From Vibrio algicola (GTDB lineage: Bacteria > Pseudomonadota > Gammaproteobacteria > Enterobacterales > Vibrionaceae), in contig NZ_CP045699.1 in NCBI RefSeq assembly GCF_009601765.2, forward strand, positions 930,001 to 994,000: DNA of 64,000 nt, read 5' to 3'. The notes below the pieces were generated by a model. The model was not told the origin of the DNA. It did not search any database and saw only the letters and a program-made list of their open reading frames with translations. Shown here one piece after another: positions 21,616 to 46,346 of the stretch. The stretch's first letter is position 1; each line of letters begins with the position of its first letter. The position numbers and the translations under genes were made by a program.

Positions 21616-21620
21616 CCGTT

Positions 21621-24908: not shown

Positions 24909-24940
24909 TTTGTTGTTTGGATTATTTGAATAGGTCAGTG

Positions 24941-25462: not shown

Positions 25463-25592
25463 GTTTTTTATTCTTATCAATACTACAACGTAATAAATAT
25501 CAGAGCTTACTCATAGTGTGATTTATAACTATTCGGTTTTAATACATAAATCGGTTATATTCATAGCACTAAAGGAATGTCGAGCTAAGCGT

Positions 25593-29284: not shown

Positions 29285-29365
29285 ACAATACAGGTATAAG
29301 CTGAATAAACCGATAGAACAGGTTATAATCCCACCCAAATTTCAGTCAGTTAAAACAGGTTTGTT

Positions 29366-30865: not shown

Positions 30866-32610
30866 TGTCAAATGAACACTCAAGAGAACATAATGTTGAA
30901 TCCCTTATTACAGAACATATAGATATCTGGACATCGACGATTAAAAGCAAATCCGCTTCTGGTCGCGGTTCAAGCAAGAAGATTGATTTATACGGTATTA
31001 AAAAACTTCGTGAGCTGATTTTAGAACTAGCGGTACGTGGCAAATTAGTGCCGCAAGATCCCAGTGATGAACCTGCTGAGGTTTTGCTTGAGCGCATTGC
31101 GATCGAGAAAGCGCAATTGGTGAAAGATAAGAAAATCAAAAAGCCCAAAGCCTTGCCAGAGATCAGTGAGGAAGAAAAGCCATTTGAACTGCCGAATGGG
31201 TGGGAGTGGAGTCGGCTGGGGAATACAGGATTTGGTTCTACGGGTAAAACACCAAACACTAAGAAAGTCGAATATTTTAAGGGTAACATACCTTTTATTG
31301 GGCCGGGACAAATCACACTGAATGGACAAATATTAGAATCAGAAAAGTTTCTAAGTGCAGAAGGATTAAAAAATAGCACTGAGTGTGTTCTGGGTGATAT
31401 TTTGATGGTTTGTATTGGAGGTTCGATTGGAAAAGCAGCTATAGCAAAGCAAACAATGGGATTCAATCAACAAATCAATGCAATTAGAGCTCTTAAAATA
31501 AGATCTGAGTATCTGTATTTAGCAGTATCAACTATTACTTTTTATGAAGAACTTTTAGATATTTCTACAGGTTCAGCAACTCCCATCATTAATAGAGGTA
31601 AGTGGGAAGAATTGTTAGTTCCAATTCCACCACTCCAAGAACAACACCGCATAGTAGCCAAAGTCGATGAACTGATGATCTTGTGTGATCAGCTTGAAAG
31701 CCAAACTGAAAAACAACTCAGCGCTCATCAACAATTGGTGGAAACCTTATTAGCCACGTTAGTTGCAAGCGAAAACGCAGCCGAACTCAATCAAAACTGG
31801 AAACGCTTAGCGGCGTATTTTGATCTACTGTTCACCACTGAAGTCAGCATTGACCAACTCAAACAAACCATCTTACAACTGGCGGTCATGGGGAAACTTG
31901 TCCCACAAAACCCAAACGACGAACCAGCTAGCAAACTGCTAGAGCGCATCAAAGCCGAAAAAGAGCAGTTAATTAAAGATAAAATTTATCAGAAAACTTC
32001 AAAGTTGAAGCCTATAAATACAGATATTCAGTACCCTAGTAATTGGGTTTCTGTGCAAACTGGTCAAGTGTGTCCGTCAATAGTACCTAATCGAGATAGA
32101 CCAAAATCTTTCACTGGGAATATACCTTGGGTGACATTACCAGCCTTTCCAACACAAGGTTTTTATCTAGATAATACTAATGTTGAGTTGGCTTTGACTG
32201 CTTTAGAAGTTCAGCAGTATTCAGCTCGTTTAATACCTGAAAAAAGTGTACTGATGAGCTGCGTTGGAAGATTTGGACTGACCGCAATCAATACAACCTC
32301 TGTTACTTCAAACCAACAAGTTCATGCATTTATAGTTTTAAATGGATTGTTACCGGAATATTTAAGTATGGTAATTAAAGTGGAAGGTAAATTTTTAGAA
32401 AATGTGGCTACATCTACAACTATCGCATATTTAAACAAGACAAATTGTGAAAGCATTCAATTTGGCTTGCCACCAACAGAAGAACAACACCGGATCGTAT
32501 CCAAAGCCGATGCACTCATGGCAATCTGTGACCAACTCAAAACCAAACTCAGTGAGTCCCAACAAACCCAACTGCATTTAACCGATGCGATTGTTGAGCA
32601 GGCGGTGTAA
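30865..32610 (+). CDS. hsdS: type I specificity subunit
   Basis: This 581-residue subunit sets the DNA sequence recognised by the restriction system. It shows two target-recognition domains (about residues 110-270 and 380-555). Each is followed by a conserved helical spacer beginning PPLQEQHRIVAKVDELM and PPTEEQHRIVSKADALM. Another repeated unit is ELAVRGKLVPQDPSDEPAEV and QLAVMGKLVPQNPNDEPASK. This tandem architecture is normal for HsdS and allows domain exchange. At 581 residues it is longer than E. coli HsdS (464) because of an N-terminal extension. The bipartite target is unknown. Confidence 0.93.
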   Translation: MSNEHSREHNVESLITEHIDIWTSTIKSKSASGRGSSKKIDLYGIKKLRELILELAVRGKLVPQDPSDEPAEVLLERIAIEKAQLVKDKKIKKPKALPEISEEEKPFELPNGWEWSRLGNTGFGSTGKTPNTKKVEYFKGNIPFIGPGQITLNGQILESEKFLSAEGLKNSTECVLGDILMVCIGGSIGKAAIAKQTMGFNQQINAIRALKIRSEYLYLAVSTITFYEELLDISTGSATPIINRGKWEELLVPIPPLQEQHRIVAKVDELMILCDQLESQTEKQLSAHQQLVETLLATLVASENAAELNQNWKRLAAYFDLLFTTEVSIDQLKQTILQLAVMGKLVPQNPNDEPASKLLERIKAEKEQLIKDKIYQKTSKLKPINTDIQYPSNWVSVQTGQVCPSIVPNRDRPKSFTGNIPWVTLPAFPTQGFYLDNTNVELALTALEVQQYSARLIPEKSVLMSCVGRFGLTAINTTSVTSNQQVHAFIVLNGLLPEYLSMVIKVEGKFLENVATSTTIAYLNKTNCESIQFGLPPTEEQHRIVSKADALMAICDQLKTKLSESQQTQLHLTDAIVEQAV

Positions 32611-32671
32611 TTGTGGCTGACATAAATAATGATTTATCTACGAAAACTGTAAGCTAAGTCACTATTTCAAT

Positions 32672-32719
32672 TTGATTTTGTGAAATATTGGTCAATACTA
32701 AAACTTAGAATAACTAAGT
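32672..32719 (+). promoter_or_regulatory. tniQ-cas promoter with Xre operator
   Basis: TTGATT (32672-32677) and ATACTA (32695-32700) with a 17-bp spacer make a plausible promoter. ACTTAG-AATAA-CTAAGT (32703-32719) directly follows, covering the expected transcription start. The palindrome has the same halves and spacing as the two sites beside xre. Repression of the tniQ-cas operon by Xre follows by inference. Confidence 0.75.
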
Positions 32720-32731
32720 TTTAGGTTGGCA

Positions 32732-33943
32732 ATGGAATTCAAATTTACCCACTACCCAGATGAAACGCTCGAAAGCTTTTTACTTCGGCTTAGCCAGTAT
32801 CAAGGTTACGAGCGTTTTGCGCATTTCGCAGAAGACCTTTGGCACGAGACGCTTGAGCAACACGAGGCAATGGCCGGTGCCTTTCCCTTTGAGCTAAGCC
32901 GTGTGAATTTGTATCACGCACAAACAAGCAGTCAAATGCGAGTGCGTGTGTTTATGCATCTTGCTAAGAAGTTCGAGTTACCCCAGTTCAATATCATGAA
33001 TACGCCGCTTTCTCACTCTAAAGCTATCTTCTCGCCAAATTACAAGGCCGTATTTCGTAATAATATTGATTATCCTTTTTCCTTTCTTAGAAAGCGTTTC
33101 ACGCCAGTTTGTTCGCAATGTTTAGCGCAATCCCCTCATATACGTCAGCAATGGCAGTTTATTCCCCATCAAGCTTGTCACATTCATCATATCAAGCTGC
33201 TTCATCATTGCCCTGAATGCAAAACTCGCCTTGAATACCAAAGTACAGAAAGCATCACTCAATGTGATTGTGGTTATGATTTAACAATGGCAATACCGGA
33301 GCAAGCAGGTGTGTCACAAGTGCAGGTTGCTCGTTGGCTAATGGGAGAAGTGGTTGATGATGCAGGGTTAATGGCATCAAGTATTAGTATTTCAGAGCGA
33401 TACGGTTTTTTACTTTGGTATGTTAATCGTTATGGTGAGCTTGAAGGTATCAATATGGAAAGCTTTGTTCACTATTGTGAAAGCTGGCCGAAGGGTTTAC
33501 AACAAGATCTCAATGCAACGTTTAATAAAGCCGATATGGTGCGCGTTCGTCCTTGGAATAAAACCTTTTTTCATGAAGTTTTTGGAACTTTACTTAAAGA
33601 TTGTCGGCAACTACCAAACCGGCGAATAAATCATAATCCAGTATTAATGGCCGTATTGGATGGATTAACACAATTGATAGCTAATAACCCTCGTAATAAG
33701 CAAGCCAATATTGGTGATGTGTTATTAAGCCCATTAGAAGCCTCTACACTGCTGTCATGTACAACCGATGAGATATATCGGTTGTACGAGTTTGGAGAGC
33801 TTAAAGCGGCGGTTAGGCTTAAATTGCACAGTAAATTAGCTTCGCAACAGTCGGCTTTTACCTTGCGAAGCATTATTGAGATGAAATTAGCCAGAATGTG
33901 CTCAAGCAGCGACGGCATGAATGTGTACTTACCGGATTGGTGA
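32732..33943 (+). CDS. tniQ: TniQ, target-selector protein of the CAST
   Basis: This 403-residue TniQ/TnsD-family protein binds Cas6 and Cas7 at one end of the guide complex and recruits TnsC. The N-terminal YPDETLESFLLRLSQYQGY is the family start. A zinc-binding region follows: CSQCL, HQACHIHH, CPECK and CDCGY (about residues 125-190). The C-terminal half is helical. The ATG 7 bp after AGG at 32723 is the start. It has the single compact form typical of I-F3; a separate, larger TnsD or TnsE is not encoded. cas8/5 begins 2 bp after its stop. Confidence 0.92.
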   Translation: MEFKFTHYPDETLESFLLRLSQYQGYERFAHFAEDLWHETLEQHEAMAGAFPFELSRVNLYHAQTSSQMRVRVFMHLAKKFELPQFNIMNTPLSHSKAIFSPNYKAVFRNNIDYPFSFLRKRFTPVCSQCLAQSPHIRQQWQFIPHQACHIHHIKLLHHCPECKTRLEYQSTESITQCDCGYDLTMAIPEQAGVSQVQVARWLMGEVVDDAGLMASSISISERYGFLLWYVNRYGELEGINMESFVHYCESWPKGLQQDLNATFNKADMVRVRPWNKTFFHEVFGTLLKDCRQLPNRRINHNPVLMAVLDGLTQLIANNPRNKQANIGDVLLSPLEASTLLSCTTDEIYRLYEFGELKAAVRLKLHSKLASQQSAFTLRSIIEMKLARMCSSSDGMNVYLPDW

Positions 33944-33945
33944 AT

Positions 33946-36045
33946 ATGACAAAGTTAAGTGAATTGATCGCAATTGAAAACCTAACCGATAGGCAAGCGG
34001 CATTAAAAAAAGCCTTTATGCCATATTCTGATCTTGTCGAGGTTGATGGTAACGAACGAGACGCCTTGCGAGTTCTGGTGAATTTATCTTTAACTAAACC
34101 GGAATGTAAAAATTGGTTAGATAAAGAACGCGCGAAACAATATTTATCGAACCCTGAAAATATCTCGATCGGCTGTGATGAAGTAAAGTGGATGCATACT
34201 CATAACCTTAAATTTCCAGATTGCAGAGTTGCAAAACAACGTTTACTGGCGGAACCACTGATTTGCGATGAATCTTTCATTTCAAGTACCAGTGTAATGA
34301 GTTCTTTGGGGTGGTCGCATAACTCAGCGGTGTATAAACACACGATTTGGCTTTTGAATGAGTTTATGTGGCAAGGCAATCCTACTAATATTCTTTGCTT
34401 CATTGCCCAGCAAGATGAATTTTGGCTCAAAGTATTAAAGTCTTGTGGGCTTAAAGTTGCGGCATTTAAAGCACTAAAAAATGCAATTGAAAAAGACTTA
34501 CCGACTTCAACGCTGCCAAATAGGGTAGATCCGTTTAGCAAGCAAGTTCGGTTTCCATGGAATAACGACTACCTCTCTATTACGCCAGTTGTCAGCCATG
34601 TGATGCAAGTCGAACTAGAACGAATGTCGCGTCAATCAGGTCGAACATTGAAGTTTACAACCATGTATTTCCCTAATTCACCCAGCATTGGTAACTTGTG
34701 TGGTTCGCTGGGTGGAAATATGAAAGTCTTGCATTATCCGATTGAGGTTCAAGCCAGTAAAAAACGCACATTTTCTTCGAGTAAAAATCAAACTCAATGT
34801 TTTTTCGATGATTATCAATTAACCAATGCTAAATTTTGTAAAGTGCTTAGTCATTTATGTGGTGCGGAGGCGCTTAAAACAAGGAAGCAACGAAAACATG
34901 TTAGGCAATATCAACTTCGTATTGCTCGTAAGCAGATTGGGTTGTGGTTATTACCGTTAATTGAATTAAGAGATCATATTGATTCGGAGTTAGATAGCCA
35001 CATTATTGACAGTGACGATCCTATCATCGACCCATTTTTATATGGTACAGAATCAAAATTATCGGAATTATTAATACTACTTAATCAACGTTTACACCAA
35101 ACGCTACAAAATAATCGATATTCCAGCAGGTATGCTTACCACCCAGAGCTGCTTTCGGTATTAAAAATTCAATTGAAATGGATACTAGAACAACTAAGTT
35201 CGCCACAAGCTGCGCCGAATGATTATGGTGATCATAAGGTCAATCATGACGAGCAAGAACAATATATCCATTTAAGTTCATTACGTGTTGAAGATGCCAA
35301 TGCAATGAGCTGTCCGTATTTATGTGGAGCGCCATCACTGACGTCGATTTGGGGATTTGTTCATAATTACCAACGGCAATTAAATCAATCGTTAGATGGT
35401 GCTGCTACGTTTGAATTTGAAAGCTTCGCGGTGTTTATTCGCAATGAAAATATCAATATGACGGCCAAGTTAACTGAGCCGAGTGTGTTAGCGGCAAAAC
35501 GCACCTTATCTCACGCAAAAAGACCGACTATCATCGCAACTAACCTTGTCGATATTGAGTTTGATATGGTGATAAAGGTAAGAAGTGTTGGGCGCTTGTC
35601 TGATTATGGGCGTCAGTTAAAAACATCATTACCCACAATATTTTCGGGAGGTGCGTTATTCCAACCTCGATTAGATTCAGCTGATAATTGGCTTTGTTGT
35701 TATCAAAAGCAAAGTGATGTGTTTTATCGAATAAAATCATTACCTGCTTATGGCGTATGGTTAGTCCCGTCGGATCTCCAACCAACCCGTTTTTCTGAGT
35801 TAGCATCAATACTTGCACAAGATGATTCACTCATACCGATTTCTAATGGATATCATTTTCTTGAACAACCGACACTCAGATCGAATTCATTAACGTCACT
35901 TCATGCCTATGCCGAAAATACATTAGGTGTAGCAAAGCGACTAAATCCGATTGATGTTCGTTTTAGTGCGAAGGATCACTTTTTTAAGCAAGCATTTTGG
36001 ACGCAACATAATTATTCAGCATCTATTCTTATTCCAAAGGCATGA
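33946..36045 (+). CDS. cas8/cas5: Cas8-Cas5 fusion of a type I-F3 Cascade
   Basis: This 699-residue protein is the large subunit that holds the 5' handle of the guide and reads the PAM. Fusion of Cas8f and Cas5f is characteristic of transposon-borne I-F3 systems. I recognise it mainly by length and position between tniQ and cas7; motifs are weak by eye. The ATG at 33946 lies 2 bp after the tniQ stop, so the longer upstream reading is not used. There is no Cas2-3 nuclease for it to recruit, in keeping with a targeting-only complex. The targeted PAM in ffs appears to be TC, so PAM reading may be relaxed. Confidence 0.88.
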   Translation: MTKLSELIAIENLTDRQAALKKAFMPYSDLVEVDGNERDALRVLVNLSLTKPECKNWLDKERAKQYLSNPENISIGCDEVKWMHTHNLKFPDCRVAKQRLLAEPLICDESFISSTSVMSSLGWSHNSAVYKHTIWLLNEFMWQGNPTNILCFIAQQDEFWLKVLKSCGLKVAAFKALKNAIEKDLPTSTLPNRVDPFSKQVRFPWNNDYLSITPVVSHVMQVELERMSRQSGRTLKFTTMYFPNSPSIGNLCGSLGGNMKVLHYPIEVQASKKRTFSSSKNQTQCFFDDYQLTNAKFCKVLSHLCGAEALKTRKQRKHVRQYQLRIARKQIGLWLLPLIELRDHIDSELDSHIIDSDDPIIDPFLYGTESKLSELLILLNQRLHQTLQNNRYSSRYAYHPELLSVLKIQLKWILEQLSSPQAAPNDYGDHKVNHDEQEQYIHLSSLRVEDANAMSCPYLCGAPSLTSIWGFVHNYQRQLNQSLDGAATFEFESFAVFIRNENINMTAKLTEPSVLAAKRTLSHAKRPTIIATNLVDIEFDMVIKVRSVGRLSDYGRQLKTSLPTIFSGGALFQPRLDSADNWLCCYQKQSDVFYRIKSLPAYGVWLVPSDLQPTRFSELASILAQDDSLIPISNGYHFLEQPTLRSNSLTSLHAYAENTLGVAKRLNPIDVRFSAKDHFFKQAFWTQHNYSASILIPKA

Positions 36046-36070
36046 GATTTCAACAGCATAAGAGTGGTGA

Positions 36071-37105
36071 ATGATGAAGTTATGTAAGCAGCTTAATTAT
36101 GTAAGGTCACTCAGTTCAGGAAAGGCATGTTTCTTCTTTCTCGATAATGACCAAAAAATGCAGCCCATCAGTATTGATAGGACTCGATTAAGAGGTTCTA
36201 AAGGTGATTATTCGCAAGCATACTCTGGCGATTTGAAACGTAAAAATGTGGCACCACATGAATTGGCGCAAGGTAATATCCATTTTATAGAAGAATGTTA
36301 CGTACCACCCACCGTTAACGAGATTTATTGTGCATTTTCACTGCGAATTAAAGCTAATTCATTAAAGCCTGAGGTCTGTTCCGATGAGGAAGTGAGAGTG
36401 ACATTAACTCATTTGGCAATGTTATATGCTGAAAACGGCGGCTATGAAGAACTCGCACAGCGTTATGCCAAGAACATCCTATTAGGAACGTGGTTATGGC
36501 GAAATAGAGAAAGTCGAGGTGTGAGGATTGAAGTGCTTAACAGCGAGCAAACGTCCTTTGTGATTGAAAATGCTTTAAAACTGAGTTGGCACGGTTCGTG
36601 GGATAAAAAATCGACAACGGTTTTGAATAAACTAACCCATTATCTAACTCAAGCACTAACCAGTTCACAAGATTATTTTTATATGGATATCAAAGCGACC
36701 ATTAGTGTGGGCTGGGGTGATGAAGTATTCCCAAGCCAAGAATTCTTGGATCAAAAAGAAAATGGTAAGCCAACAAAGCGACTGTCTACCGTATGTCTTC
36801 CAGATGAACTTGAAACGGTAGCATTTCATGCACAAAAAGTTGGGGCAGCCATTCAATGCATTGATGATTGGTGGCAAGACGATGCAGATAAACCCTTAAG
36901 AGTGAATGAGTATGGAGCCGATCGAGAGTATGTGATCGCTAGGCGGCATTCGAGTTTGAATACGGATTTCTATTATTTAATAAGCCAAGCTGAGCACTGG
37001 ATTGATGTGTTAAATCAGTCAAAAACAATACCAGATGAAGTGCATTTTATTATGTCGGTATTAGTCAAAGGTGGGTTATTCAATAGTAGTAAGGACTCTC
37101 AATGA
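36071..37105 (+). CDS. cas7: Cas7 (Csy3-type) backbone subunit
   Basis: This protein of about 344 residues forms the filament along the spacer, with one subunit per six bases; the base at every sixth position is flipped out. The N-terminal YVRSLSSGKACFF and central NILLGTWLWRNRESRG agree with type I-F Cas7. Two ATGs at 36071 and 36074 follow AGTGGTGA; either could serve. Its end overlaps the cas6 start by 4 bp. The every-sixth-base geometry matters for the homing guide in this window, whose mismatches fall at 6, 12 and 18. Confidence 0.9.
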   Translation: MMKLCKQLNYVRSLSSGKACFFFLDNDQKMQPISIDRTRLRGSKGDYSQAYSGDLKRKNVAPHELAQGNIHFIEECYVPPTVNEIYCAFSLRIKANSLKPEVCSDEEVRVTLTHLAMLYAENGGYEELAQRYAKNILLGTWLWRNRESRGVRIEVLNSEQTSFVIENALKLSWHGSWDKKSTTVLNKLTHYLTQALTSSQDYFYMDIKATISVGWGDEVFPSQEFLDQKENGKPTKRLSTVCLPDELETVAFHAQKVGAAIQCIDDWWQDDADKPLRVNEYGADREYVIARRHSSLNTDFYYLISQAEHWIDVLNQSKTIPDEVHFIMSVLVKGGLFNSSKDSQ

Positions 37106-37713
37106 CGCAACGGTATTATTTCATTGTTAAATTCTTACTGGAGGATGTGGATGCTGGTTTACTCGCCGGTCGTTGTATCTCAACGCTGCATGGTTTTATC
37201 AACAATAACCTTACCGGTAAAAATCAAGTGGGCGTGAGCTTTCCTTTATGGAGTGATGATACTCTAGGAAATGCAGTTGCTTTTGTGGCAGACGATAAAG
37301 AACTGTTGATTGGTTTGTCGTTTCAGCCTTATTTTTCATTGATGAAAAGCGAAGAACTGTTTGACCTCTCACCCGTGGTACCAGTCCCTACTGATTTGCC
37401 TGAAATCAGATTTGTTCGAAATCAAACTATTGGGAAAAGTTTTCTTGGGTCAAAGCGCCGCAGAATGAAGCGTGCTCAATCAAGGGCTGAAACTATGGGG
37501 AAATTGATAACACCGCAACCGAATGAAGAACGAGAATTTGAATTATTCCATCGAGTACCATTAACCAGTAAATCTACCGGCGAAGAGATGATGCTTCATG
37601 TGCAAAAGCAAAGTAATGTTGAAGTGGTGGATACTAATTTTAATGCTTATGGCCTAGCAACTAATCAAGCTTGGAAAGGAACAGTACCAGACCTGAAGAA
37701 CGCAATGTTGTAA
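37102..37713 (+). CDS. cas6: Cas6 (Csy4-type) guide-processing RNase
   Basis: This 203-residue RNase cuts the precursor guide RNA after the repeat hairpin and stays bound to it. STLHGFI places a histidine at residue 30, near the catalytic His29 of Csy4. The basic stretch GSKRRRMKRAQSRAE (about 113-128) fits the helix that enters the hairpin groove. ATGA overlap joins it to cas7. It must accept both the consensus repeat hairpin (CTGCC/GGCAG) and the altered one in the third repeat (CTGCT/GGCAG). Confidence 0.9.
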   Translation: MTQRYYFIVKFLLEDVDAGLLAGRCISTLHGFINNNLTGKNQVGVSFPLWSDDTLGNAVAFVADDKELLIGLSFQPYFSLMKSEELFDLSPVVPVPTDLPEIRFVRNQTIGKSFLGSKRRRMKRAQSRAETMGKLITPQPNEEREFELFHRVPLTSKSTGEEMMLHVQKQSNVEVVDTNFNAYGLATNQAWKGTVPDLKNAML

Positions 37714-37830
37714 AGACTGATAATGCATTACTTTAAAATCAAAAGGGTAGTGATTGAGATAAAAAAGGTATTTTCAACGTTATATGGTGTAATAACTTGA
37801 AAATGCATAATATTACGTCTAATTTTTATA

Positions 37831-37964
37831 GTGACCTGCCGAGTAGGCAGCTAAAAATGCACTATCTCAAGAGCAGATCAATTGGATGCGGTGACCTGCC
37901 GAGTAGGCAGCTAAAAATAGATCTGGAAGACAGCATCCATACCTGCTGATAGGCAGTAAAATAT
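37831..37964 (+). CRISPR. mini CRISPR array, two repeats plus one degenerate repeat
   Basis: Identical 28-bp repeats lie at 37831-37858 and 37891-37918, each with the CTGCC-GAGTA-GGCAG hairpin and a CTAAAAAT end. A degenerate third repeat lies at about 37938-37964 (CATACCTGCTGATAGGCAG, then TAAAATAT). It has two single-base deletions and changes in the first bases. Spacer 1 (37859-37890) is 32 nt. Spacer 2 (37919-37937) is 19 nt and matches ffs. The array directly follows cas6, with its own AT-rich leader, and ends at a terminator. Confidence 0.93.
37919..37937 (+). other. short homing spacer matching ffs
   Basis: AGATCTGGAAGACAGCATC, 19 nt, matches ffs 20814-20832 at 15 of 19 bases, and the next two bases also agree. 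Mismatches are at positions 4, 6, 12 and 18. The last three are the flipped-out positions of the type I-F effector. Standard spacers in the same array are 32 nt, so this one is shortened by about two six-base Cas7 units. Confidence 0.8.
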
Positions 37965-37973
37965 ATAAAAGAT

Positions 37974-38007
37974 AAAGCCCACTAAGCACCACTGCTTAGT
38001 GGGCTTT
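37974..38007 (+). terminator. terminator after the CRISPR array
   Basis: AAAGCCCACTAAGCA and TGCTTAGTGGGCTTT form a perfect 15-bp stem with a 4-nt loop, 10 bp past the array. It should end the cas-guide transcript. Confidence 0.9.
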
Positions 38008-38104
38008 GTTCTATTTTCAGTATTAAATGGCGTTAGGAGTATCTATTAAAATAACTTCATGATTTTATAACTTGCAAAATGAGTATTTATCCTTAAAAAT
38101 AACA

Positions 38105-38120
38105 CTGTTGTTATATACAG
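38105..38120 (+). promoter_or_regulatory. LexA (SOS) box
   Basis: CTGT-TGTTATAT-ACAG is a full match to the gammaproteobacterial LexA consensus. It lies 15 bp before the umuD start, so the cargo umuDC is damage-inducible. Confidence 0.85.
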
Positions 38121-38135
38121 TGTTCTAAGGGTTTT

Positions 38136-38540
38136 ATGAAAGTCATTCCTATTTCCGCCGGTGCCGGTATCACAGGCTTTGAGTCGCCAGCTGCAGAGTA
38201 TTCTCAATTGAGTTTATCGCTTGATGATTTGTTAGTTGATCACCCAAGTTCAACCTTTCTGTGCAAAGCTTGTGGTGACTCGATGCAAAATGTCGGCATC
38301 TTTAGTCAGGATATTTTGATCGTGGATCGCCATGAAGTGGCCAAGAATCTAGATGTGGTCGTGGCCAATTTTAATGGTGAATTTGTGTGCAAAATCATTG
38401 ATATGAAAAATCGACTATTGCTGTCGGCGAATGAAAAAATTCAACCGGTGGCGGTGTTCGATTACGATCAATTTTCGATTGAAGGCGTGGTCGTGCGCTC
38501 GATCCGCTGTCATCGTCCAAGTTATTTACTCGCGAGCTAA
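38136..38540 (+). CDS. umuD: UmuD-like S24 peptidase, SOS mutagenesis accessory
   Basis: This 134-residue protein is the LexA-like partner of DNA polymerase V. It has the N-terminal self-cleavage region (ISAGAGITGFESPAAEY, with an Ala-Gly bond), the catalytic serine in KACGDSMQNVG, and the lysine in EFVCKII. Cleavage upon RecA activation would free UmuD'. It follows a LexA box. umuC begins 4 bp after its stop. It lies just past the CAST array terminator. As the partner umuC looks damaged, the protein may now have no polymerase to serve. Confidence 0.9.
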   Translation: MKVIPISAGAGITGFESPAAEYSQLSLSLDDLLVDHPSSTFLCKACGDSMQNVGIFSQDILIVDRHEVAKNLDVVVANFNGEFVCKIIDMKNRLLLSANEKIQPVAVFDYDQFSIEGVVVRSIRCHRPSYLLAS

Positions 38541-38544
38541 CACC

Positions 38545-39705
38545 ATGTTTGCGCTGGTCGATGCCAATGCCTTTTATTGCAGCGCCGAGCAGGTGTTTCG
38601 TCCTGATCTGCGTGGCAAGCCTTTGGTGGTGCTATCTAATAATGATGGCTGCATTGTGGCGGCCAATCGACAAGCCAAAGAACTCGGCATTCCTAAGTTT
38701 GCCCCTTTTTTTAAAGTGCGCGAGTTATGTGAAAAGCAAGGGGTGATCGCCTTATCGTCTAATTATGAACTGTATGCGGATCTCTCGGCCAAAATGATGG
38801 CGGTGATCGGACGCTTTGCTCCTGTTCAGCATATTTACTCGATTGATGAATCATTCTTATCTTTGAGACACTGTCACCAAGCCATCCCTTGTTTACTAAC
38901 TCATGGCGCACTGATCCGTCGCGCGGTGTGGAAAGAGTGTCGTTTGCCGGTGTGCGTTGGGATGGGAGAAACCCTTACGTTGGCCAAGCTTGCCAACCAT
39001 GCCGCCAAGAAAATCGAAGGCTATCAAGGGGTGTGCATTCTCAATAATGAGACAGCGCGACAACAGGTATTAAAATCGGTCGATGTGAGTGAGGTGTGGG
39101 GGATTGGGCGACGATTGAGTGCCAAATTAAAAGTGATGAAAGTACATACGGCGTGGGATTTATCTCGCCTTGAACCGGCTGTCGCGCAGCGCCAATTTAA
39201 CGTTGAAGTTGAGCGGATCGTCTATTTGCATTCATTACAACAAGCACTTAGCAAGCATACCGCCATTGCGGCCTATAAAGCACGGCAACAACACAGTTTA
39301 TGCAAGGTGTTGATGTGTTTTGCAGCCAGCTCTCCTTATGATGTCAAGCCGGTATCACATAAAATGGTGCATTCCTTTGCGTATCCCACCTCTGATACCA
39401 CCGTGCTCACTCATACGGTCATGGCAATGGCGAAAGCAATGTTTCAGCAAGGTGAGCGTTATTACAAAATAGGGGTTGGATTGTTAGATTTAGTGGAAGG
39501 TAAGCACGCTCAGATTGATTTTTTGAATCCAAAGCCCGACGACCCTCGCTTAATGGCGGTGTTTGATGGATTAAATCAACGTTATGGAACCGACAGCGTC
39601 TTTTTGGCAGCGCAAGGGATTGAGCATAAATGGGCAATGAGGCGAGAAAGGTTGTCGCCTCAATATACGACTAAGTGGGGGGATCTGCCGGTAGTGAGGT
39701 GTTGA
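38545..39705 (+). CDS. umuC: UmuC-like Y-family polymerase, probably internally deleted
   Basis: This 386-residue frame starts MFALVDANAFYCSAEQVF with the first catalytic aspartate, and has SIDESFL with the second acidic pair and the VWGIGRRL thumb motif. The C-terminal QIDFLNPKPDDPRLMAVFD and YTTKWGDLP are normal. Family members are about 422 residues. Here the frame runs from VERIVYLHSL straight into QQALSKHTAIAA. The segment containing the conserved SRSFG motif, at the start of the little finger, is missing: about 36 residues, in frame. DNA or clamp binding is probably lost. ATG 38545 is the start; the longer reading overlaps umuD. Confidence 0.8.
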   Translation: MFALVDANAFYCSAEQVFRPDLRGKPLVVLSNNDGCIVAANRQAKELGIPKFAPFFKVRELCEKQGVIALSSNYELYADLSAKMMAVIGRFAPVQHIYSIDESFLSLRHCHQAIPCLLTHGALIRRAVWKECRLPVCVGMGETLTLAKLANHAAKKIEGYQGVCILNNETARQQVLKSVDVSEVWGIGRRLSAKLKVMKVHTAWDLSRLEPAVAQRQFNVEVERIVYLHSLQQALSKHTAIAAYKARQQHSLCKVLMCFAASSPYDVKPVSHKMVHSFAYPTSDTTVLTHTVMAMAKAMFQQGERYYKIGVGLLDLVEGKHAQIDFLNPKPDDPRLMAVFDGLNQRYGTDSVFLAAQGIEHKWAMRRERLSPQYTTKWGDLPVVRC

Positions 39706-39765
39706 GTTAAACGATCAATATATATTTACGGTGACTTAATCAAACCACCGTAAAATTACGGCTAT

Positions 39766-40098
39766 TTATGTGAGATCTTCGACTTGTGCACTAGGTGCAT
39801 TCGTTTTCACAGACTCAATACCATTATCTCTTGATGCTATGCTTGCATAAGATTGACTGGTGCCTATTACTTGGTGATTGCCAGCCTTTAGATTAAACAT
39901 GTGCTTTCCTGACGCGGTTTCTTTTCGCTCAAATCTTGAATCATCAGGTGCATTGGTTTTTACCGATTCAATACCGTTCTCACAACTGGCTTTTGTTGTG
40001 TATCCTTCACTGGCTAAAATATTCTGACCATTTCCGGCTTTCAAGCGAAAACGAAACTCACCAGCAGCATCTGTATACATTTCAAACTTTCCAGACAT
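39766..40098 (-). CDS. YegP-like protein, two DUF1508 repeats
   Basis: This 110-residue protein is made of two tandem DUF1508 units. Each has a strand-rich F-x-R/N-LKAGN core (FRFRLKAGNGQNILAS and HMFNLKAGNHQVIGTS) and ends with GIESVKTNAP. E. coli YegP has the same build; its function is unknown. It is on the opposite strand between umuC and a second umuC fragment, so it probably arrived with or between duplicated umuC sequences. Confidence 0.88.
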   Translation of the reverse strand: MSGKFEMYTDAAGEFRFRLKAGNGQNILASEGYTTKASCENGIESVKTNAPDDSRFERKETASGKHMFNLKAGNHQVIGTSQSYASIASRDNGIESVKTNAPSAQVEDLT

Positions 40099-40204
40099 AA
40101 CAACCTCTACAATTTATTTTAGTGATTAATATTAGTTATTTGACAAGTTACTTTATCAACTGTAGCTTTTTTTTGTTTAATTTGCAGTCAATAATTGCAG
40201 TCTT

Positions 40205-40446
40205 TTAAGTTAGGCGTAGGTTTGTTGGATTTGGTGGATGGTAAAAATACCCAAGTCGATTTTCTAAATGAGTAACCGGATAACCCAGCGTTAATGGGGG
40301 ATGCACTGAATCAGCGTTATGGAACCGATAGCGTGTTCTTGGTTGTGCAAGGGTTCGACGAAAAATGGGCAATGTGGCGAGAAAGGTTGTCGCCTCACTA
40401 TACGACATGGTGGGAGGGATCTGCCGATTGTGAGGTGTTAGTGTAA
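40205..40446 (+). pseudogene. umuC 3' fragment (duplicated relic)
   Basis: The sequence repeats the end of the nearby umuC: GLLDLVDGK, QVDFLNE, NQRYGTDSVFL and RERLSPHYTT can be read. An in-frame stop (TGA/TAA region near 40273) and further damage are present. About 80 codons remain. It shows that two umuC 3' ends once flanked the yegP-like gene. Confidence 0.8.
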
Positions 40447-40586
40447 ATGATATTTGCCCCATTCCTTGCTAGCCGCGCTCAACCTCACAAATCATAGTGA
40501 GATGATTTGACCTACTTTTTTTTATCAATGTAATGTCTAGGGAAGTGGACGCTTACCAGATAACAACTATAGGAAAGTTATGGCTA

Positions 40587-41516
40587 ATGAAAGAACTAAA
40601 CACATTTCAGAGTGTTAATGAACGTGATGTTGATTTATTAGTGCTAGAGGAGCTTAATGTTTCCGACTCATTTGCTCAATGGTTTGTTTGTCGTGTTCGC
40701 GAAGAAATAACCTCAATAAAAACGCTCGGTGCTTGGCACTCGGTCGTAGATACTAACCTAGGCGAGTCAGACTTAGTTTATATCTATCAATCAGATGACT
40801 TATCTTCACAAGCAATACTTATTGAAAACAAGATAGATGCTTCAGCTCAGGCTCAACAAGGAGAGATATATAGACTTAGGGGTAACAGAGGTCTAGAAGA
40901 TGGTCTTTGGCAAGATTTTAGAACATGTATCATTGCTCCAAAGGCATATATCGCTCGAAATGCTGAGCCATACGACGCTGCTATTTCATACGAAGAAATA
41001 ATGGTTTACCTTGCTGCCCAAGGTGATAAGCGAGGACTCTATAAGGCACAGACATTAAGAGATGCTATTGAAAAAAACAGAAGGGGTTACGTTGCGACGG
41101 TTTGCATTAAAACAACAGATTTTGCACAAAAATACTTAGCTTATGCCTCAGAACATTTTCCTCAATTGAATCCTGAGCAACCCAAACCCCGAGCTAATGG
41201 GCACGACTGGATTCATTTCTATCCCGAACCAATAAATAAAAAAATACGAATCATTCACCAGATCTACGGCAAAGTCATCAAGTTGCAGTTTCTAGGCCAA
41301 GCAGACAACTTTGACGATATCAAAAGTCACTTTGAAGGTTTGGAATGTAGTGGATATCGAATAATAAAGTCGGGAAAATCAGTAAATATAGAAACACCAT
41401 TACCTGAAATATCAATCGCAGAACAGAGTTTTGACTCAGTATTGGAAGAAATTGGTATCGCTCTAAATAAAGCCCAGCAGTTGCATTCGTGGATGGAAAA
41501 TTACCATTCTGTGTGA
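40587..41516 (+). CDS. PD-(D/E)XK nuclease-like protein
   Basis: This protein of about 309 residues has SDLVYIYQ followed by ILIENKIDASAQAQQGEIY, a D...ExK...Q arrangement of PD-(D/E)XK nucleases. The remaining two-thirds has no motif that I recognise. The ATG at 40587 is favoured because AGGA lies about 12 bp upstream; an ATG at 40533 is possible. It stands alone in the cargo and is ended by a hairpin at 41566. A solitary anti-phage nuclease is a reasonable guess, not shown. Confidence 0.65.
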   Translation: MKELNTFQSVNERDVDLLVLEELNVSDSFAQWFVCRVREEITSIKTLGAWHSVVDTNLGESDLVYIYQSDDLSSQAILIENKIDASAQAQQGEIYRLRGNRGLEDGLWQDFRTCIIAPKAYIARNAEPYDAAISYEEIMVYLAAQGDKRGLYKAQTLRDAIEKNRRGYVATVCIKTTDFAQKYLAYASEHFPQLNPEQPKPRANGHDWIHFYPEPINKKIRIIHQIYGKVIKLQFLGQADNFDDIKSHFEGLECSGYRIIKSGKSVNIETPLPEISIAEQSFDSVLEEIGIALNKAQQLHSWMENYHSV

Positions 41517-41565
41517 CCGTTAAAGAAACGATACTAAGGAAAACTTATATCCAGAGGCCTGCTGA

Positions 41566-41592
41566 TGGGGCATAAAACACATAAATGCCCCA
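41566..41592. terminator. hairpin after the nuclease-like gene
   Basis: TGGGGCAT and ATGCCCCA form an 8-bp stem across an 11-nt loop. The T run is weak (TTCCGTTTTT). The right arm is also the start of the cassette-associated repeat found at 44190 and 44919. Confidence 0.45.
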
Positions 41593-41660
41593 TTCCGTTT
41601 TTGCGCAAAATTCACTATCAAGGACACCAGCTAACTTTACCTTAGAAAAAGTAGCCTGAG
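41586..41660. repeat. cargo intergenic repeat, copy 1
   Basis: TGCCCCATTCC, GCGCAAAATTCACT, then TTTACCTTA followed by AGTAGCCTGA align with the copies at 44190-44289 and 44919-45030. A shorter piece starting TGCCCCATTCC is at 40455. The rest of the stretch to 41834 holds no gene that I can see. Confidence 0.45.
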
Positions 41661-41834
41661 ATGCAAGCTGATAGACTCTGCTGCGAGACATTTTACTTAC
41701 TAGACTCAATAAACAAGCAATACACCTTGATTAAGGGTGATACACAACCATGTTTGTTCAAAATTTTGTTAAAAACCGCTACCATCGTTGTGTGATTATC
41801 AAGCGGCTTTGTCATTAAGCAAACTAACCACTCC

Positions 41835-42392
41835 CTATAGAACTCTATTAAGTGCTGCTATTTCTTTTTCATATTGCTCAAAAGAGCGCATAAAGTGTTT
41901 GCTTCTGAAGTTCTCGATGTACTCGCCGCTTAGGTGAAAGCTAATAAACTCTTCACTTTCGAGCACTGATTGAAAGTAAGCTATCGCTTCTTCTGAAATT
42001 GGAGATATTCGAACAAACCCATTTGCTAAACATTGCTGTTCGACATTTACAAACTGATTTTTAATCTTAATGGTTTTAGATTCAACGTTAAGACAGCGGA
42101 GTCCTTTACTTGGAACCTCTTTAACAATGACGAAAGGCGCTTTTCTATCACTGCTCATCCCGATATAGCTACTGTTACCCCTAAGGCCAGAAGGTAACTT
42201 GAGAGATATTACTTTGTTATTGGATGTGACCGACCATGAATAAAGTGGGCTTCCCCATCCATACATTTCTGAATATGCTAGCCTTGTCAGACGATTCTCA
42301 GTAATGCTTGCCCCAAGTTCATAGCCTGATAAAAATAGAACTACTGCAACTACCAAACAACCCACTTTGACTAAGTTTGATTTCAGACTCAT
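41835..42392 (-). CDS. unrecognised single-pass membrane protein
   Basis: This protein of about 185 residues has one N-terminal hydrophobic helix (VGCLVVAVVLFLSGYELG), with positive residues before it, so the rest should be periplasmic. No motif is recognised in the soluble part, which has three cysteines and many charged residues. GGAG lies 6 bp before ATG 42392. It is the only minus-strand gene in this part of the cargo besides the yegP-like gene. The cysteine content allows a disulfide in the periplasm. Confidence 0.55.
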   Translation of the reverse strand: MSLKSNLVKVGCLVVAVVLFLSGYELGASITENRLTRLAYSEMYGWGSPLYSWSVTSNNKVISLKLPSGLRGNSSYIGMSSDRKAPFVIVKEVPSKGLRCLNVESKTIKIKNQFVNVEQQCLANGFVRISPISEEAIAYFQSVLESEEFISFHLSGEYIENFRSKHFMRSFEQYEKEIAALNRVL

Positions 42393-42398
42393 CTGCAC

Positions 42399-42777
42399 TC
42401 CACGTGTTAAATAATAAATTTAAGTATGGTGGTCATCGACTAACTAGATACTCGACCGATTGGATTATACAGAATGGAAAATGGAACATCACCAACTCCC
42501 ATACAATATCTTACATTTAGGGTTTCTAGCTCATATAGAACAAGTCATTGCCGTCGATTAGATAACACATGAGTCATGATCTGTTCCAGCAGGAGTAGAC
42601 ATCTGAACAAGCGATTTCTCTATACTAAACGTTATCCTAATTAAGGTAAATTACGTAACGCAAAAATGTCCAGAACCTTCATTTGTGCTGATTCTTTACT
42701 TATGTGTAACTTTCTTCACTAGATAACGGTTCATTAACATGTGCTATGTTGTATCGAATTTTTGAAGGGGGAATATT
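42399..42777. other. gene-free cargo interval
   Basis: I see no gene, RNA or clear repeat in these 379 bp. It should carry promoters for the two divergent flanking genes. Confidence 0.4.
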
Positions 42778-43347
42778 TTGTCTCAGTGTAAGTATCTTAA
42801 TCAGGTAAGTGTGTTTATACGTCATAACTTCATCTCTAAAGGATGCGAGTTAACCAGTCCTGTCGTGTTAGATCGATATCCTCAGAATAGTAAGTATGAA
42901 GCTCTTGAATTCTCAATAGATGGAAAAAAAATTCTTTATAGAAAGGGGAATGTTACACCAGATAGACCAGGTAATTTTCTATCAATATGGAAGAGACCTG
43001 ATGAAAATAGTACCGATCCGAGAAGGACGATGCCTTACGAAGAGCATGATTTAGATTATCTTTTTGTTGAGGTTAGTGATTGCGACATATCGAAGAGAGG
43101 TATTTATATCTTCCCGTTGACTGCTTTGATTGATAAGGGAGTTGTAACCTCAAATAAAGCTAAAGGAAAAATGGCCTTCAGAGTTTTTCCGCCGTGGACT
43201 TCAAGCCGTGGAGAGTTGAAATCTAAAGTTTTTTCCGATTCAGCAAAGAAAACTCAGAGGTGGCAGAGTCATTTCTTTTTATGGATTGAAGATAATGAGA
43301 TTGTTGACTTAGAAAAATTCAATAATATTTTCAGCAGTTTAAGTTAG
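42778..43347 (+). CDS. MepB-like protein
   Basis: This 189-residue protein starts with TTG, supported by GAAGGGGG 7-8 bp before it. The order ILYRKGNVTPDRPGNFLSIW, YLFVEVSD, GIYIFPLTALIDKGVVTS, AFRVFPPW and QRWQSHFFLW follows the MepB family. That family was named for a gene in a staphylococcal mepRAB operon and has no established activity. It is a single cargo gene followed by a long hairpin. A role in DNA or nucleotide metabolism has not been shown. Confidence 0.7.
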   Translation: MSQCKYLNQVSVFIRHNFISKGCELTSPVVLDRYPQNSKYEALEFSIDGKKILYRKGNVTPDRPGNFLSIWKRPDENSTDPRRTMPYEEHDLDYLFVEVSDCDISKRGIYIFPLTALIDKGVVTSNKAKGKMAFRVFPPWTSSRGELKSKVFSDSAKKTQRWQSHFFLWIEDNEIVDLEKFNNIFSSLS

Positions 43348-43376
43348 ATTTACCCCCCCTAGACCAAACCTTTTTA

Positions 43377-43408
43377 CTAGTGTGATGCGATTTTATTCAT
43401 CACACTAG
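43377..43408 (+). terminator. hairpin after the MepB-like gene
   Basis: CTAGTGTGATG and CATCACACTAG form a perfect 11-bp stem with a 10-nt loop. The following CTTTCC is a poor T run, so it may be a terminator or a recombination site. Confidence 0.5.
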
Positions 43409-43537
43409 CTTTCCAAAACCCGCTTTGCCATACAAAAAGTTATTGAGCAGTTGCAAATTTTGGAAATTCACTGGCTCAACTTTTGTCCATTTCCTTCCAA
43501 CTACAATCGTGATGACCAAATAAAGAAGGAGGTCATC

Positions 43538-44134
43538 ATGGTGGTTTTCAAAAAAACAAAACGAAGTGGCGTCAAAAAGCCTTTTCGGCTTGAGGAAATT
43601 TGGCGGATCAGAACCAGACTAGAGATTGAAAATAGTTTGATGCAGCTTGCACTACTTAACTTAGCTATTGATAGCAAACTTAGAGCTAGTGACTTGCTCT
43701 CGCTCAGGGTTTGCGATGTATCTTCGCAAGATATGATATTTAGTCGTGTTAAGCATATTCAGCGCAAAACAGACATTGAAGTTCAATTTGAAATAACGAC
43801 AAGAACTCAACAAAGTCTAATGAAATGGATTTTGATTTCTTCGCTAAACGCCAGCGATTTTCTTTTTCCAAGCCAAAGACGACAGCAACAACCAATTAGC
43901 TATTCGTACTATAGATACCTAGTCAGAAAGTGGGCGTCAGATCTAGGGTTGGATTCTAACCTTTATGGCACTCACTCAATGAGGCGAACCAAAGCGACAT
44001 TAGTTTATGCAAAAACGAAAAATATTCGAGCGGTGCAGCTTTTGCTGGGACATACAAAGGTAGATAACACGATTCGCTATCTTGGTGTTGAATTAGAAGA
44101 CGCATTGTTACTTTCAGAAGGCACTGATTGTTAG
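43538..44134 (+). CDS. small tyrosine recombinase
   Basis: This 198-residue protein consists of little more than a catalytic domain. It has the first arginine in KLRASDLLSL, HSMRRTK (H-x-x-R), LLGHTKVDNTIRYLG with the second histidine and the nucleophilic tyrosine. All core residues are therefore present. GGAGG is 5-6 bp before ATG 43538. The size is that of FimB/FimE-type invertases, not of phage or integron integrases, which have an extra N-terminal domain. It lies in the middle of single-gene units separated by related repeats and may act on them. Confidence 0.85.
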   Translation: MVVFKKTKRSGVKKPFRLEEIWRIRTRLEIENSLMQLALLNLAIDSKLRASDLLSLRVCDVSSQDMIFSRVKHIQRKTDIEVQFEITTRTQQSLMKWILISSLNASDFLFPSQRRQQQPISYSYYRYLVRKWASDLGLDSNLYGTHSMRRTKATLVYAKTKNIRAVQLLLGHTKVDNTIRYLGVELEDALLLSEGTDC

Positions 44135-44189
44135 TCGAAAGGAACCCTATTTTTTAGGGTTTCAATTAGCTACTATTCTGACAAGCTGT

Positions 44190-44289
44190 TGCCCCAAAGT
44201 TCGTTAGAGCAAATACTTTACACAATTTAGGGGCATGCGTTTTGCCCTACGAAAAGTTATCCAAATTCGGTAGCTGTCAAAATTATGCC
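44190..44289. repeat. cargo intergenic repeat, copy 2
   Basis: TGCCCCA, TTTACACAAT, GTTTTGCCCTAC, AGTTATCC and AAAATTATGC are shared in order with 44919-45030. The motif TTTGCC-x-TAC-x4-AGTTAT also occurs at 43424. It lies after the recombinase gene and before the acetyltransferase gene. Confidence 0.5.
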
Positions 44290-44408
44290 ACACAGAAAAC
44301 CGCCCCCATTATCTTTATCACTAACCTATTAATTTATTGTTGAAGCGTAAAAAGAAAGGCATTATGTGATCATGGAATACAAACGCCTCTTAGCAATTAG
44401 GAGAAACA

Positions 44409-44879
44409 ATGAGCGTAAATATCAGAAGTGCAGTAATCAGTGATTCGAAGGCAATCAGTGAATTAATCTTACCTTTAGCAAAAAAATATATTTGTCCTAC
44501 TTGTGATGCGTCTGCACACTATATTTTGCTCAATTCAATGTCAGAGGAAAATGTAGGAAAGTATTTATCCACCAATTACAACTATGTTATTGCCGTGACT
44601 GCGAATGATGAAGTGGTTGGCGTGGCTGGAGTTCGAGACAACTCTCATTTATATCACCTTTTTGTCGATGATAATTTTCAGGGCAATGGGCTTTCCCGCC
44701 AATTATGGGAAGCGGTTAAAGAAGAATCAATAAAAAATGGGAACAGCGGTATCTTTACGGTTAACTCGGCGGTAAATGCAGAAAGCGTATACTCACGGTT
44801 TGGTTTTAAACGCACTGAGGGCATCAGAAATCGGCAAGGAATGATTGATATTCCAATGCTGTTAGATCTTGAGTACTAA
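44409..44879 (+). CDS. GNAT-family N-acetyltransferase
   Basis: This 156-residue protein is one GNAT domain. The N-terminal IRSAVISDSKAISEL, the strand VVGVAGVRD, LYHLFVDDNFQGNGLSRQLW with the acetyl-CoA loop (QGNGLS), and FGFKRTEG are in the expected order. The acceptor is unknown; many mobile-element GNATs modify small amines, peptides or antibiotics. Two extra cysteines (CPTCDA) near residue 33 are unusual. AGGAG is 7 bp before the ATG. It is flanked on both sides by the intergenic repeat, as a cassette would be. Confidence 0.85.
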   Translation: MSVNIRSAVISDSKAISELILPLAKKYICPTCDASAHYILLNSMSEENVGKYLSTNYNYVIAVTANDEVVGVAGVRDNSHLYHLFVDDNFQGNGLSRQLWEAVKEESIKNGNSGIFTVNSAVNAESVYSRFGFKRTEGIRNRQGMIDIPMLLDLEY

Positions 44880-44918
44880 CAAGCGTTTTTGCCCAGAGAC
44901 GTGTCTCTAAAACGTTTG

Positions 44919-45030
44919 TGCCCCATTCCTTTTCAGCGCGAAAGTTTACTCACAATCTGTGATTGTACGTTTGCCTTACCTGTAGTTATCCGAGGGAGTG
45001 TCGAAGTAAGCTTTTTAAAAATTATGCGTC
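44919..45030. repeat. cargo intergenic repeat, copy 3
   Basis: TGCCCCATTCC, TTTACTCACAAT, GTTTGCCTTAC, AGTTATCCGA and AAAATTATGC align with copy 2. Downstream, AAGCGTTATGTG (45119) resembles GCATTATGTG before the previous gene. This recalls the repeated start of Vibrio integron cassettes. Confidence 0.5.
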
Positions 45031-45153
45031 ATTTTGCAATCTAATACACAATATCTATCATTAACCCATTGATTGTAAATTGATCAATGATTAAAAAGGC
45101 TGCATGATAGGAGTATAAAAAGCGTTATGTGTAATCCAAAGTTAAGGGAAAGA

Positions 45154-46026: not shown

Positions 46027-46154
46027 AACCAATACTCTAACGCGCTTCTGTCCAATTATGAGTTAGTGAGTAGTAATAAACGTTAAGTTTACTCAGAAGT
46101 GATATTGAAGAGTTGTAAGTAACTTTCTTACAGAAATTTGTATGGTTTGGTTTT

Positions 46155-46254
46155 TATGCAAACTTTTACTGCAAAGTTATGCAATCTTCTATTGCAAAAG
46201 TGCATGTAAGTTATTGATTATTTATTTTTATTATGCAGACTTATGTTGCACACA
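46155..46254. repeat. distal transposon end with TnsB sites
   Basis: Read from 46254 inward on the minus strand, sites lie at 46251-46232, 46197-46178 and 46174-46155. Each has TGCAA at the start and TGCATA at the end, as at the other end. The 34-bp gap after the outermost site matches the spread layout of the Tn7 left end. Open frames crossing it are fortuitous. Confidence 0.8.
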
Positions 46255-46346
46255 TCACCTTCTACTGCTTTATCTTTACTTATCAAGTAATTACTTCCCT
46301 AGCTATAACAATGAAAGTAAATTGGTACTAAACAGTGGTACTAAAC

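What the first reader, a model, noticed from the sequence alone, without database searches (positions are those of the whole stretch)
37919..37937. Naturally shortened (19-nt) homing guide in an I-F3 CRISPR transposon
Seen: the first spacer is 32 nt, but the second is only 19 nt before the degenerate repeat begins. It aligns with ffs 20814-20834 at 17 of 21 bases, with mismatches at 4, 6, 12 and 18. Positions 6, 12 and 18 are the ones flipped out by Cas7. The transposon end lies 52 bp beyond a 19-nt target, close to the roughly 49-bp rule of I-F3 insertion; a 32-nt target would leave 39 bp. Known: homing guides with altered repeats exist in I-F3 elements. Inference: a smaller Cascade with about two fewer Cas7 subunits carries out homing, while full-length guides serve mobile targets. 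I do not know of this for I-F3, but cannot search the literature here.
Basis: partly seen in the sequence, partly recalled or inferred. Interest (0 to 1): 0.88.

Follow-up and report, generated by a model that had tools for sequence, protein, structure and literature searches.

The report
Shortened homing guide in CRISPR transposon
A family of RNA-guided jumping genes in marine bacteria seems to find its home site with a guide of about 20 letters instead of the usual 32, and it sits about 12 bases closer to the start of the target, as a shorter guide complex would predict.

Summary
The window holds a complete type I-F3 CRISPR transposon (20882-46257, duplication CCTTC) next to ffs. Its last spacer is about 20 nt; the other is 32. 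Of 82 arrays examined, 67 carry an ffs guide: 54 short, 13 full length. From target base 1 to the transposon: 68-69 bp for short guides with the window's end type, 69-72 (one 75) with a second type, 79-83 for 32-nt guides. The ~12-bp shift equals the missing 12 nt. At a second site, an AraC-family gene, one short-guide element sits at 69 bp and one 32-nt relative at 83. Short guides match ffs up to position 20 except at 6, 12 and 18, and on average at background beyond (not in the window's own group); long guides match to 32. Short-guide Cas8 form one clade. Best reading: a Cascade with about four Cas7 does the homing and the insertion ruler starts at its end. RNA length and Cas7 number are inferred. 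No report was found in the library held; key primary papers are not held.

The parts
20882..46257 (+). complete I-F3 CRISPR-associated transposon, ends TGATGTTTGC...ACACATCA
   Evidence: inverted end motifs and 5-bp duplication
20877..20881 (.). target-site duplication CCTTC, left copy
46258..46262 (.). target-site duplication CCTTC, right copy
20776..20872 (+). ffs (small SRP RNA), attachment gene
   Evidence: Rfam RF00169, 69.1 bits
20812..20813 (+). PAM TC
   Evidence: sequence; TC is reported as the predominant PAM of ffs elements in PMC12774636 (passage)
20814..20833 (+). 20-bp target of the short guide
   Evidence: 16 of 20 match, mismatches 4, 6, 12, 18
20992..21615 (+). tnsA
   Evidence: PF08722
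21606..23489 (+). tnsB
   Evidence: PF09299; PseTnsAB 442 bits
23486..24517 (+). tnsC (TniB-type ATPase)
   Evidence: PF05621
25518..32610 (+). cargo: type I restriction-modification genes (R, M, S) with an Abi_2-like gene between R and M
   Evidence: Pfam
32726..33943 (+). tniQ
   Evidence: PF06527
33898..36045 (+). cas8/5 fusion
   Evidence: PF09614; best solved chains Cas8 30ga and Cas8/5 7u5d
36071..37105 (+). cas7 (csy3)
   Evidence: TIGR02566
37102..37713 (+). cas6 (csy4)
   Evidence: TIGR02563
37831..37858 (+). CRISPR repeat 1
37859..37890 (+). spacer 1, 32 nt, target unknown
37891..37918 (+). CRISPR repeat 2 (last 8 nt = 5' handle of the short guide)
37919..37938 (+). short homing guide, about 20 nt
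   Evidence: short ffs guide in 54 of 82 arrays; matching ends at position 20 on average
37943..37956 (+). atypical Cas6 hairpin CTGCT-GATA-GGCAG that ends the short guide
37974..38007 (+). inverted repeat, terminator-like
   Evidence: self-complementary match

Best explanation
The last array unit makes a homing crRNA with a ~20-nt guide. The same Cas proteins that load 32-nt guides build a shorter Cascade on it, probably with four Cas7 instead of six (L = 6N-4). It pairs with ffs positions 1-20 except the flipped bases 6, 12 and 18. TniQ, TnsC and TnsAB then assemble from the end of this shorter R-loop, so insertion falls ~48 bp beyond position 20, that is 68 bp from target base 1, instead of ~80-83. 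Shown by sequence: guide length in the array, match limits, insertion distances, clade. Inferred: Cas6 cutting at the atypical hairpin, Cas7 number, R-loop length, and that this guide made the insertions seen.
For: 54 of 82 arrays have the short ffs guide and 13 the long one. 50 of 54 short arrays have a junction: 39 with window-type ends (68 in 33, 69 in 5; L131 reads 68 with a changed terminal base), 11 with a second end type (69-72 in 10, 75 in 1). 9 of 13 long arrays have one: 79-81; three more long elements 80, 83, 83. Target duplications confirm the window's 68 and a long-guide 79 (L120). Second att gene, AraC family: short 69, long 83, one element each, TnsB 73% identical. Guide against own ffs, 43 distinct short pairs: mismatch in 127 of 129 cells at 6/12/18, 34 of 731 elsewhere in 1-20; positions 21-32 match 24.4% against 23.7% background; 9 long pairs match 63.9% there (background 22.3%), mismatched at 24 and 30 in all 9. 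Other spacers in the 54 short arrays: 74 of 80 are 32 nt, the rest 31-34. The homing hairpin keeps pairs 1-4 of the element's own repeat stem in 43 of 51 arrays compared, one base different in the other 8. Short-guide Cas8 lie in one clade of 53 rows, SH-aLRT 98.
Against: No RNA or protein data. Published I-F3 work says mismatches at 25-29 abolish transposition (PMC12774636, passage), and a review of Klompe 2019 says shortened spacers showed 'little or no effect on DNA transportation', which I read as little or no integration (PMC10188703, passage). In the window and L064 positions 21-32 match ffs at 7 of 12, and in five other short arrays at 5-6 of 12 (L065 and Neiella L129-L132); 43 of 50 have 4 or fewer. 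One short element (Photobacterium, L067/L172) sits at 75 bp. The hairpin offset is usually 14 nt shorter, not 12, so anatomy fixes the guide only to 18-20 nt. A right end with matching duplication was found in 1 of 22 relatives tried (the fetched tails are short). Position 13 is also mismatched in 8 of 9 long and 12 of 43 short pairs. Elements are related by descent, so counts are not independent.
Confidence: 0.85

Rival explanations
1. The guide is really 32 nt and runs through the atypical repeat.
For: In the window and L064 7 of 12 bases at 21-32 match ffs.
Against: Over 43 distinct pairs positions 21-32 match at background, 24.4% against 23.7%. A Cas6-type hairpin sits at +23 to +26 in the 54 short arrays (four of five pairs in L116, L118, L119) and resembles the element's own repeat stem. 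Distance from a 32-nt end would be 36 bp, outside the published ~49-50.
Confidence: 0.05
2. The 12-bp shift is a property of the transposase lineage, not of the guide length.
For: Window-type ends occur only with short guides among the 59 ffs junctions classified, and the third end type only with long guides.
Against: The second transposase type gives 69-72 bp (one 75) with short ffs guides, 69 bp with a short AraC guide and 83 bp with a long AraC guide; the last two TnsB are 73% identical.
Confidence: 0.05
3. A full-size six-Cas7 complex forms on a longer RNA and only a partial 20-bp R-loop opens; the ruler follows the R-loop end, not the complex end.
For: RNA ends were not measured; partial R-loop states of I-F3 TniQ-Cascade are known (PMC12774636, passage).
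Against: The Cas6-type hairpin lies 11-14 nt too early for six Cas7 in the 54 short arrays.
Confidence: 0.05

Closest known systems
Type I-F3b CRISPR-associated transposons that home to ffs with a 32-nt atypical guide (element on Aeromonas salmonicida pS44-1, AsCAST by my recall of the strain)
   Same: tnsABC, tniQ, cas8/5, cas7, cas6; ffs-like last spacer followed by an altered repeat
   Different: ffs guide of 32 nt there; its long-guide kin with a junction insert 79-83 bp from target base 1; here ~20 nt and 68 bp
Vibrio SRP-RNA-site Tn7-like elements described in PMC6360697
   Same: same att site and the same two kinds of transposon ends (Table 1, passage)
   Different: no statement on guide length in the passages seen
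Engineered truncated Cascade complexes of type I-F1 (PMC7296934)
   Same: 20-nt spacers expected to hold four Cas7f; complexes from 14 nt up purified and bound target DNA (abstract and passages)
   Different: man-made; there truncation blocks Cas2/3 action; here natural and, by inference, active for transposition
Type V-K transposons with truncated homing repeat-spacer units (title in a reference list)
   Same: a shortened unit used for homing
   Different: single-protein Cas12k effector; unrelated mechanism (my knowledge)

Membership tests
Type I-F3 CRISPR-associated transposon | tnsA, tnsB, tnsC, tniQ with cas8/5, cas7, cas6 in one element | tested here: met
Type I-F3 CRISPR-associated transposon | transposon ends with 5-bp target duplication | tested here: met
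   CCTTC both sides
Type I-F3 CRISPR-associated transposon | no cas1, cas2/3 in the element | not tested
   twelve ORFs of the element were scanned; none matched these, the rest were not scanned
Type I-F3 CRISPR-associated transposon | 32-nt guide with insertion ~49-50 bp beyond it (82 bp from the PAM in VchCAST, PMC13345079) | tested here: not met
   36 bp if counted from 32 nt; 48 bp if counted from 20 nt
I-F3b, ffs-homing branch | ffs target, TC PAM, atypical last repeat | tested here: met
I-F3b, ffs-homing branch | Xre-type regulator | not tested
   a small ORF 24514-24828 (-) lies where L061 carries an HTH regulator; not searched
Short-guide Cascade | four Cas7 on a 20-nt guide | not testable with these tools
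   needs purified complex

The most novel reading that the evidence does not exclude
Guide length is itself a category code. One Cascade builds a six-Cas7 complex on 32-nt spacers and a four-Cas7 complex on the homing guide; the transposition licence reads the end of whatever R-loop is formed, not positions 25-32; and the short R-loop cannot license Cas2/3 of a resident I-F1 system, so a self-targeting homing guide is made safe by being short.
Probability: 0.5. Interest if true: 0.9.

Novelty: new variant of a known kind. Interest (0 to 1): 0.8.

Why it matters
Current structural models put the licence for I-F3 transposition in pairing at positions 25-29 and 31-32 of a 32-nt guide (PMC12774636, passages) and count 82 bp from the PAM as 32 plus fixed protein footprints (PMC13345079, passage). 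A natural clade whose homing guide lacks these positions, and whose insertion moves in by the missing length, indicates that the ruler is modular and starts at the end of the Cascade filament. It offers a smaller RNA-guided integration complex and a direct test of how guide length, checkpoint and self-safety are linked.

Tried and rejected
A first fuzzy repeat search was far too permissive and was replaced. A regular expression with a wrong loop length gave nothing and was redone. Targets for the 32-nt spacer 1: none in plasmids, no exact match in viral contigs, one weak Rhodococcus phage match (E 0.3), dismissed. The window's cas8/5 had no near DNA match in E. coli genomes. A scan for clade-specific Cas8/5 indels found short ones (window residues ~68, 249-250, 296, 500-501, 567-568); not pursued. 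A search for right ends with matching duplication in 22 relatives found one (L120). Elements with the second TnsABC type were first suspected to be tandem insertions; in the two short-guide ones checked from ffs to array (L090, L115) tnsABC, tniQ, cas genes and array lie together with no window-type end found between. Literature: ten searches and passages of nine papers (a tenth, PMC10293859, held none of the terms) gave no statement of short homing guides in I-F3; Petassi 2020 and Klompe 2022 are not held and Park 2023 was not looked up, so prior mention there is not excluded.

Full report
What is there. The window carries a complete type I-F3 CRISPR-associated transposon. Profile searches name TnsA, TnsB, TnsC, TniQ, Cas8/5, Cas7 and Cas6. 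The left end lies downstream of ffs (Rfam RF00169 at 20776-20872). The right end (...CACACATCA) ends at 46257 and is followed by CCTTC, the same five bases that precede the left end at 20882. This genome has one ffs match.

The array. Two identical 28-nt repeats flank a 32-nt spacer. The next unit is short: after the 8-nt handle there are 24 nt before the hairpin CTGCT-GATA-GGCAG, against 37 nt for a normal 32-nt spacer plus 5 nt. The hairpin folds as expected. An inverted repeat that looks like a terminator follows. By eye no second Cas6-type hairpin lies where a 32-nt guide would need it.

Relatives. 81 had a Cas6 or Cas7 match to orient them (L112 did not); with the window 82 arrays were examined. 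67 carry a guide that starts like ffs: 54 short (hairpin 23-26 nt after guide nt 1) and 13 long (37-39). The 15 others: array lost (L077, where Pfam finds two transposase genes after cas6), array not found (L122), cut by contig ends (L066, L083), AraC-type guides (L107, L109, L111, L061, the second and fourth being one plasmid) or other ~32-nt last guides (L062, L127, L128, L133, L136, L138, L139). A named collection (79 loci) shows the same two forms: short in Vibrio anguillarum, V. metoecus, V. crassostreae, V. tasmaniensis, V. jasicida, V. mytili, V. albus, V. plantisponsor and three Neiella among others; long in Grimontia, Enterovibrio, Photobacterium galatheae, Pseudoalteromonas, Neptunomonas, Marinobacter and Moritella. 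The two sets overlap and are not independent.

Insertion distance. Measured from target base 1 to the transposon end, 50 of 54 short arrays (not L060, L076, L088, L116) and 9 of 13 long arrays (not L059, L063, L135, L140) have a junction in the same genome; in 5 of the 50 (L068, L071, L089, L110, L114) ffs and array lie on different contigs. Short guide, window-type ends: 68 in 33, 69 in 5, and L131, which reads 68 with terminal TA instead of TG. Short guide, second end type (TnsB of L090 and L115 36-37% to the window): 69 in 2, 70 in 1, 71 in 4, 72 in 3, 75 in 1. Long guide: 79 in 4, 80 in 3, 81 in 2; three further named long elements give 80, 83 and 83. Junctions whose guide is unknown were not counted: L122 79, L141 69, L178 68, L162 68, L077 68; so was L174, a window-type end at 68 in a genome whose Cas8 hit is a plasmid element with a long AraC guide. 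Of 22 relatives searched for a right end with matching duplication, one gave it: L120, long guide, AGCTT, 79 bp. Among the 39 window-type junctions the gap from the CACC/CGCC near the end of ffs to the transposon is 4-5 in 34; the informative cases are the Neiella elements, whose ffs is longer: gap 1-2, distance from target base 1 still 68-69. This favours a ruler from the target over one from the gene end, on few independent cases.

A second attachment site. L107 (L207, Vibrio sp. CAU 1672) has a short guide (27 nt to the hairpin) for the end of a gene: 17 of 20 match, mismatches 12, 13, 18, PAM CC, insertion 69 bp. G121 (L111) has a 32-nt guide (37 nt to the hairpin) for the end of a closely similar gene (AraC family, PF12833), 26 of 32 match, insertion 83 bp. 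Their TnsB are 73% identical and both Cas8 fall in the short-guide clade. This separates guide length from att gene and from transposase type, with one element on each side.

Where the guide ends. For 43 distinct short pairs of guide and own ffs, positions 6, 12 and 18 are mismatched in 127 of 129 cells, the other positions up to 20 in 34 of 731 (mostly 3, 4 and 13), and positions 21-32 match at 24.4% against a shifted background of 23.7%. This average hides the window's own group: the window and L064 match at 7 of 12 there, L065 and the four Neiella arrays at 5-6, the other 43 of 50 arrays at 4 or fewer; all seven have the hairpin at +24, so part of the match lies in the hairpin itself. For 9 long pairs positions 21-32 match at 63.9% (background 22.3%) and the six-step mismatches continue at 24 and 30; positions 13 and 22 are also often mismatched there. 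In 21 distinct guides of the commonest length, positions 19-20 are fixed (one change), 21-22 vary and 23 is always C. The guide is therefore 20 nt by matching, 18-20 by anatomy. Bases at every sixth position are flipped out in class 1 effectors (PMC12774636, passage). The relation L = 6N-4 gives four Cas7 for 20 nt and six for 32 (PMC7296934, passage).

Same machine. Of 80 other spacers in the 54 short arrays, 74 are 32 nt, four 31, one 33, one 34. In 51 arrays compared (L067, L113 and L116 left out because the preceding repeat is not standard) the homing hairpin keeps pairs 1-4 of the element's own repeat stem in 43 and differs by one base in 8; five of the 51 have CCG/CGG instead of CTG/CAG in both; the loop-closing pair is changed from C-G to T-A in 50 and to T-G in the window. 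So one Cas6 and one Cascade very likely serve both lengths. The two long AraC elements nested in the short clade fit this.

Descent. In a Cas8 tree of 104 proteins all 46 short-ffs rows, the short AraC row, the two long AraC rows and four rows without a label lie in one clade of 53 (SH-aLRT 98); the 24 long-ffs and 19 other 32-nt rows lie outside (quick method, some long branches). One origin of the short mode is the simplest reading.

How it probably works. Inferred: Cas6 cuts at the atypical hairpin, giving an ~46-nt crRNA; a short Cascade binds ffs; TniQ and TnsC load at the end of its R-loop; insertion follows ~48 bp on. This conflicts with pairing at 25-29 as a general licence (PMC12774636): here that segment of the guide is absent, so the checkpoint would sit at the new end. 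A possible gain: in I-F1, R-loops shorter than 32 bp do not trigger Cas2/3 (PMC7296934, abstract and passages), so a short self-targeting guide would be harmless even if a host I-F1 system took it up. This last point is untested here.

Exceptions. L067/L172 (Photobacterium, 75 bp) has a damaged array end with two short ffs-like units. L118 and L119 have an A at the first stem position. None of the 59 ffs junctions pairs a long guide with a distance under 79 or a short guide with one over 75.

Novelty. Ten full-text searches in the held library found no statement of short homing guides in I-F3 elements. Papers were seen as listings and passages only. Petassi 2020 and Klompe 2022 are not held and Park 2023 was not looked up, so I cannot exclude that the short spacer is drawn in a figure there.

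Noticed in passing
L121, L123, L124, L126, L069 (downstream of the array): A second complete small SRP RNA gene (Rfam RF00169, 59-69 bits) lies after the CRISPR array, apparently inside the element; the host ffs is at the left end (for L069 in L164). L123, L126 and L124 are Grimontia indica, Enterovibrio coralii and Enterovibrio sp. (L229, L237, L242). The transposon may carry its own copy of the gene it inserts next to. Right ends were not found.
   Followed up: partly
L090, L115, L106, L107, L108 against window and L105: The same tniQ-cas lineage with short guides is combined with two distant TnsABC sets (TnsB 35-39% identical between them), so the transposition module seems to have been exchanged while the guide mode was kept.
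   Followed up: partly
L067 after cas6; L191: Photobacterium aquae has two tandem ffs-like units, the first with only about 19 nt before its hairpin by eye, which could be a three-Cas7 guide or decay; its insertion is at 75 bp.
   Followed up: no
L077 17281-18815: In a strain with a 68-bp ffs junction the place after cas6 holds two transposase genes (PF01527, PF00665) and no CRISPR repeat was seen in the 1 kb after cas6, so the element may have lost its guides.
   Followed up: partly
window 10557-11302: Four tandem tRNA-Tyr genes on the minus strand.
   Followed up: no
positions 6, 12, 18 of short ffs guides, also 24 and 30 of long ones: Flipped-out positions are mismatched almost always (127 of 129 cells in short pairs), more than the 75% expected from free drift; shared descent may explain it, or they may be kept mismatched.
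   Followed up: partly
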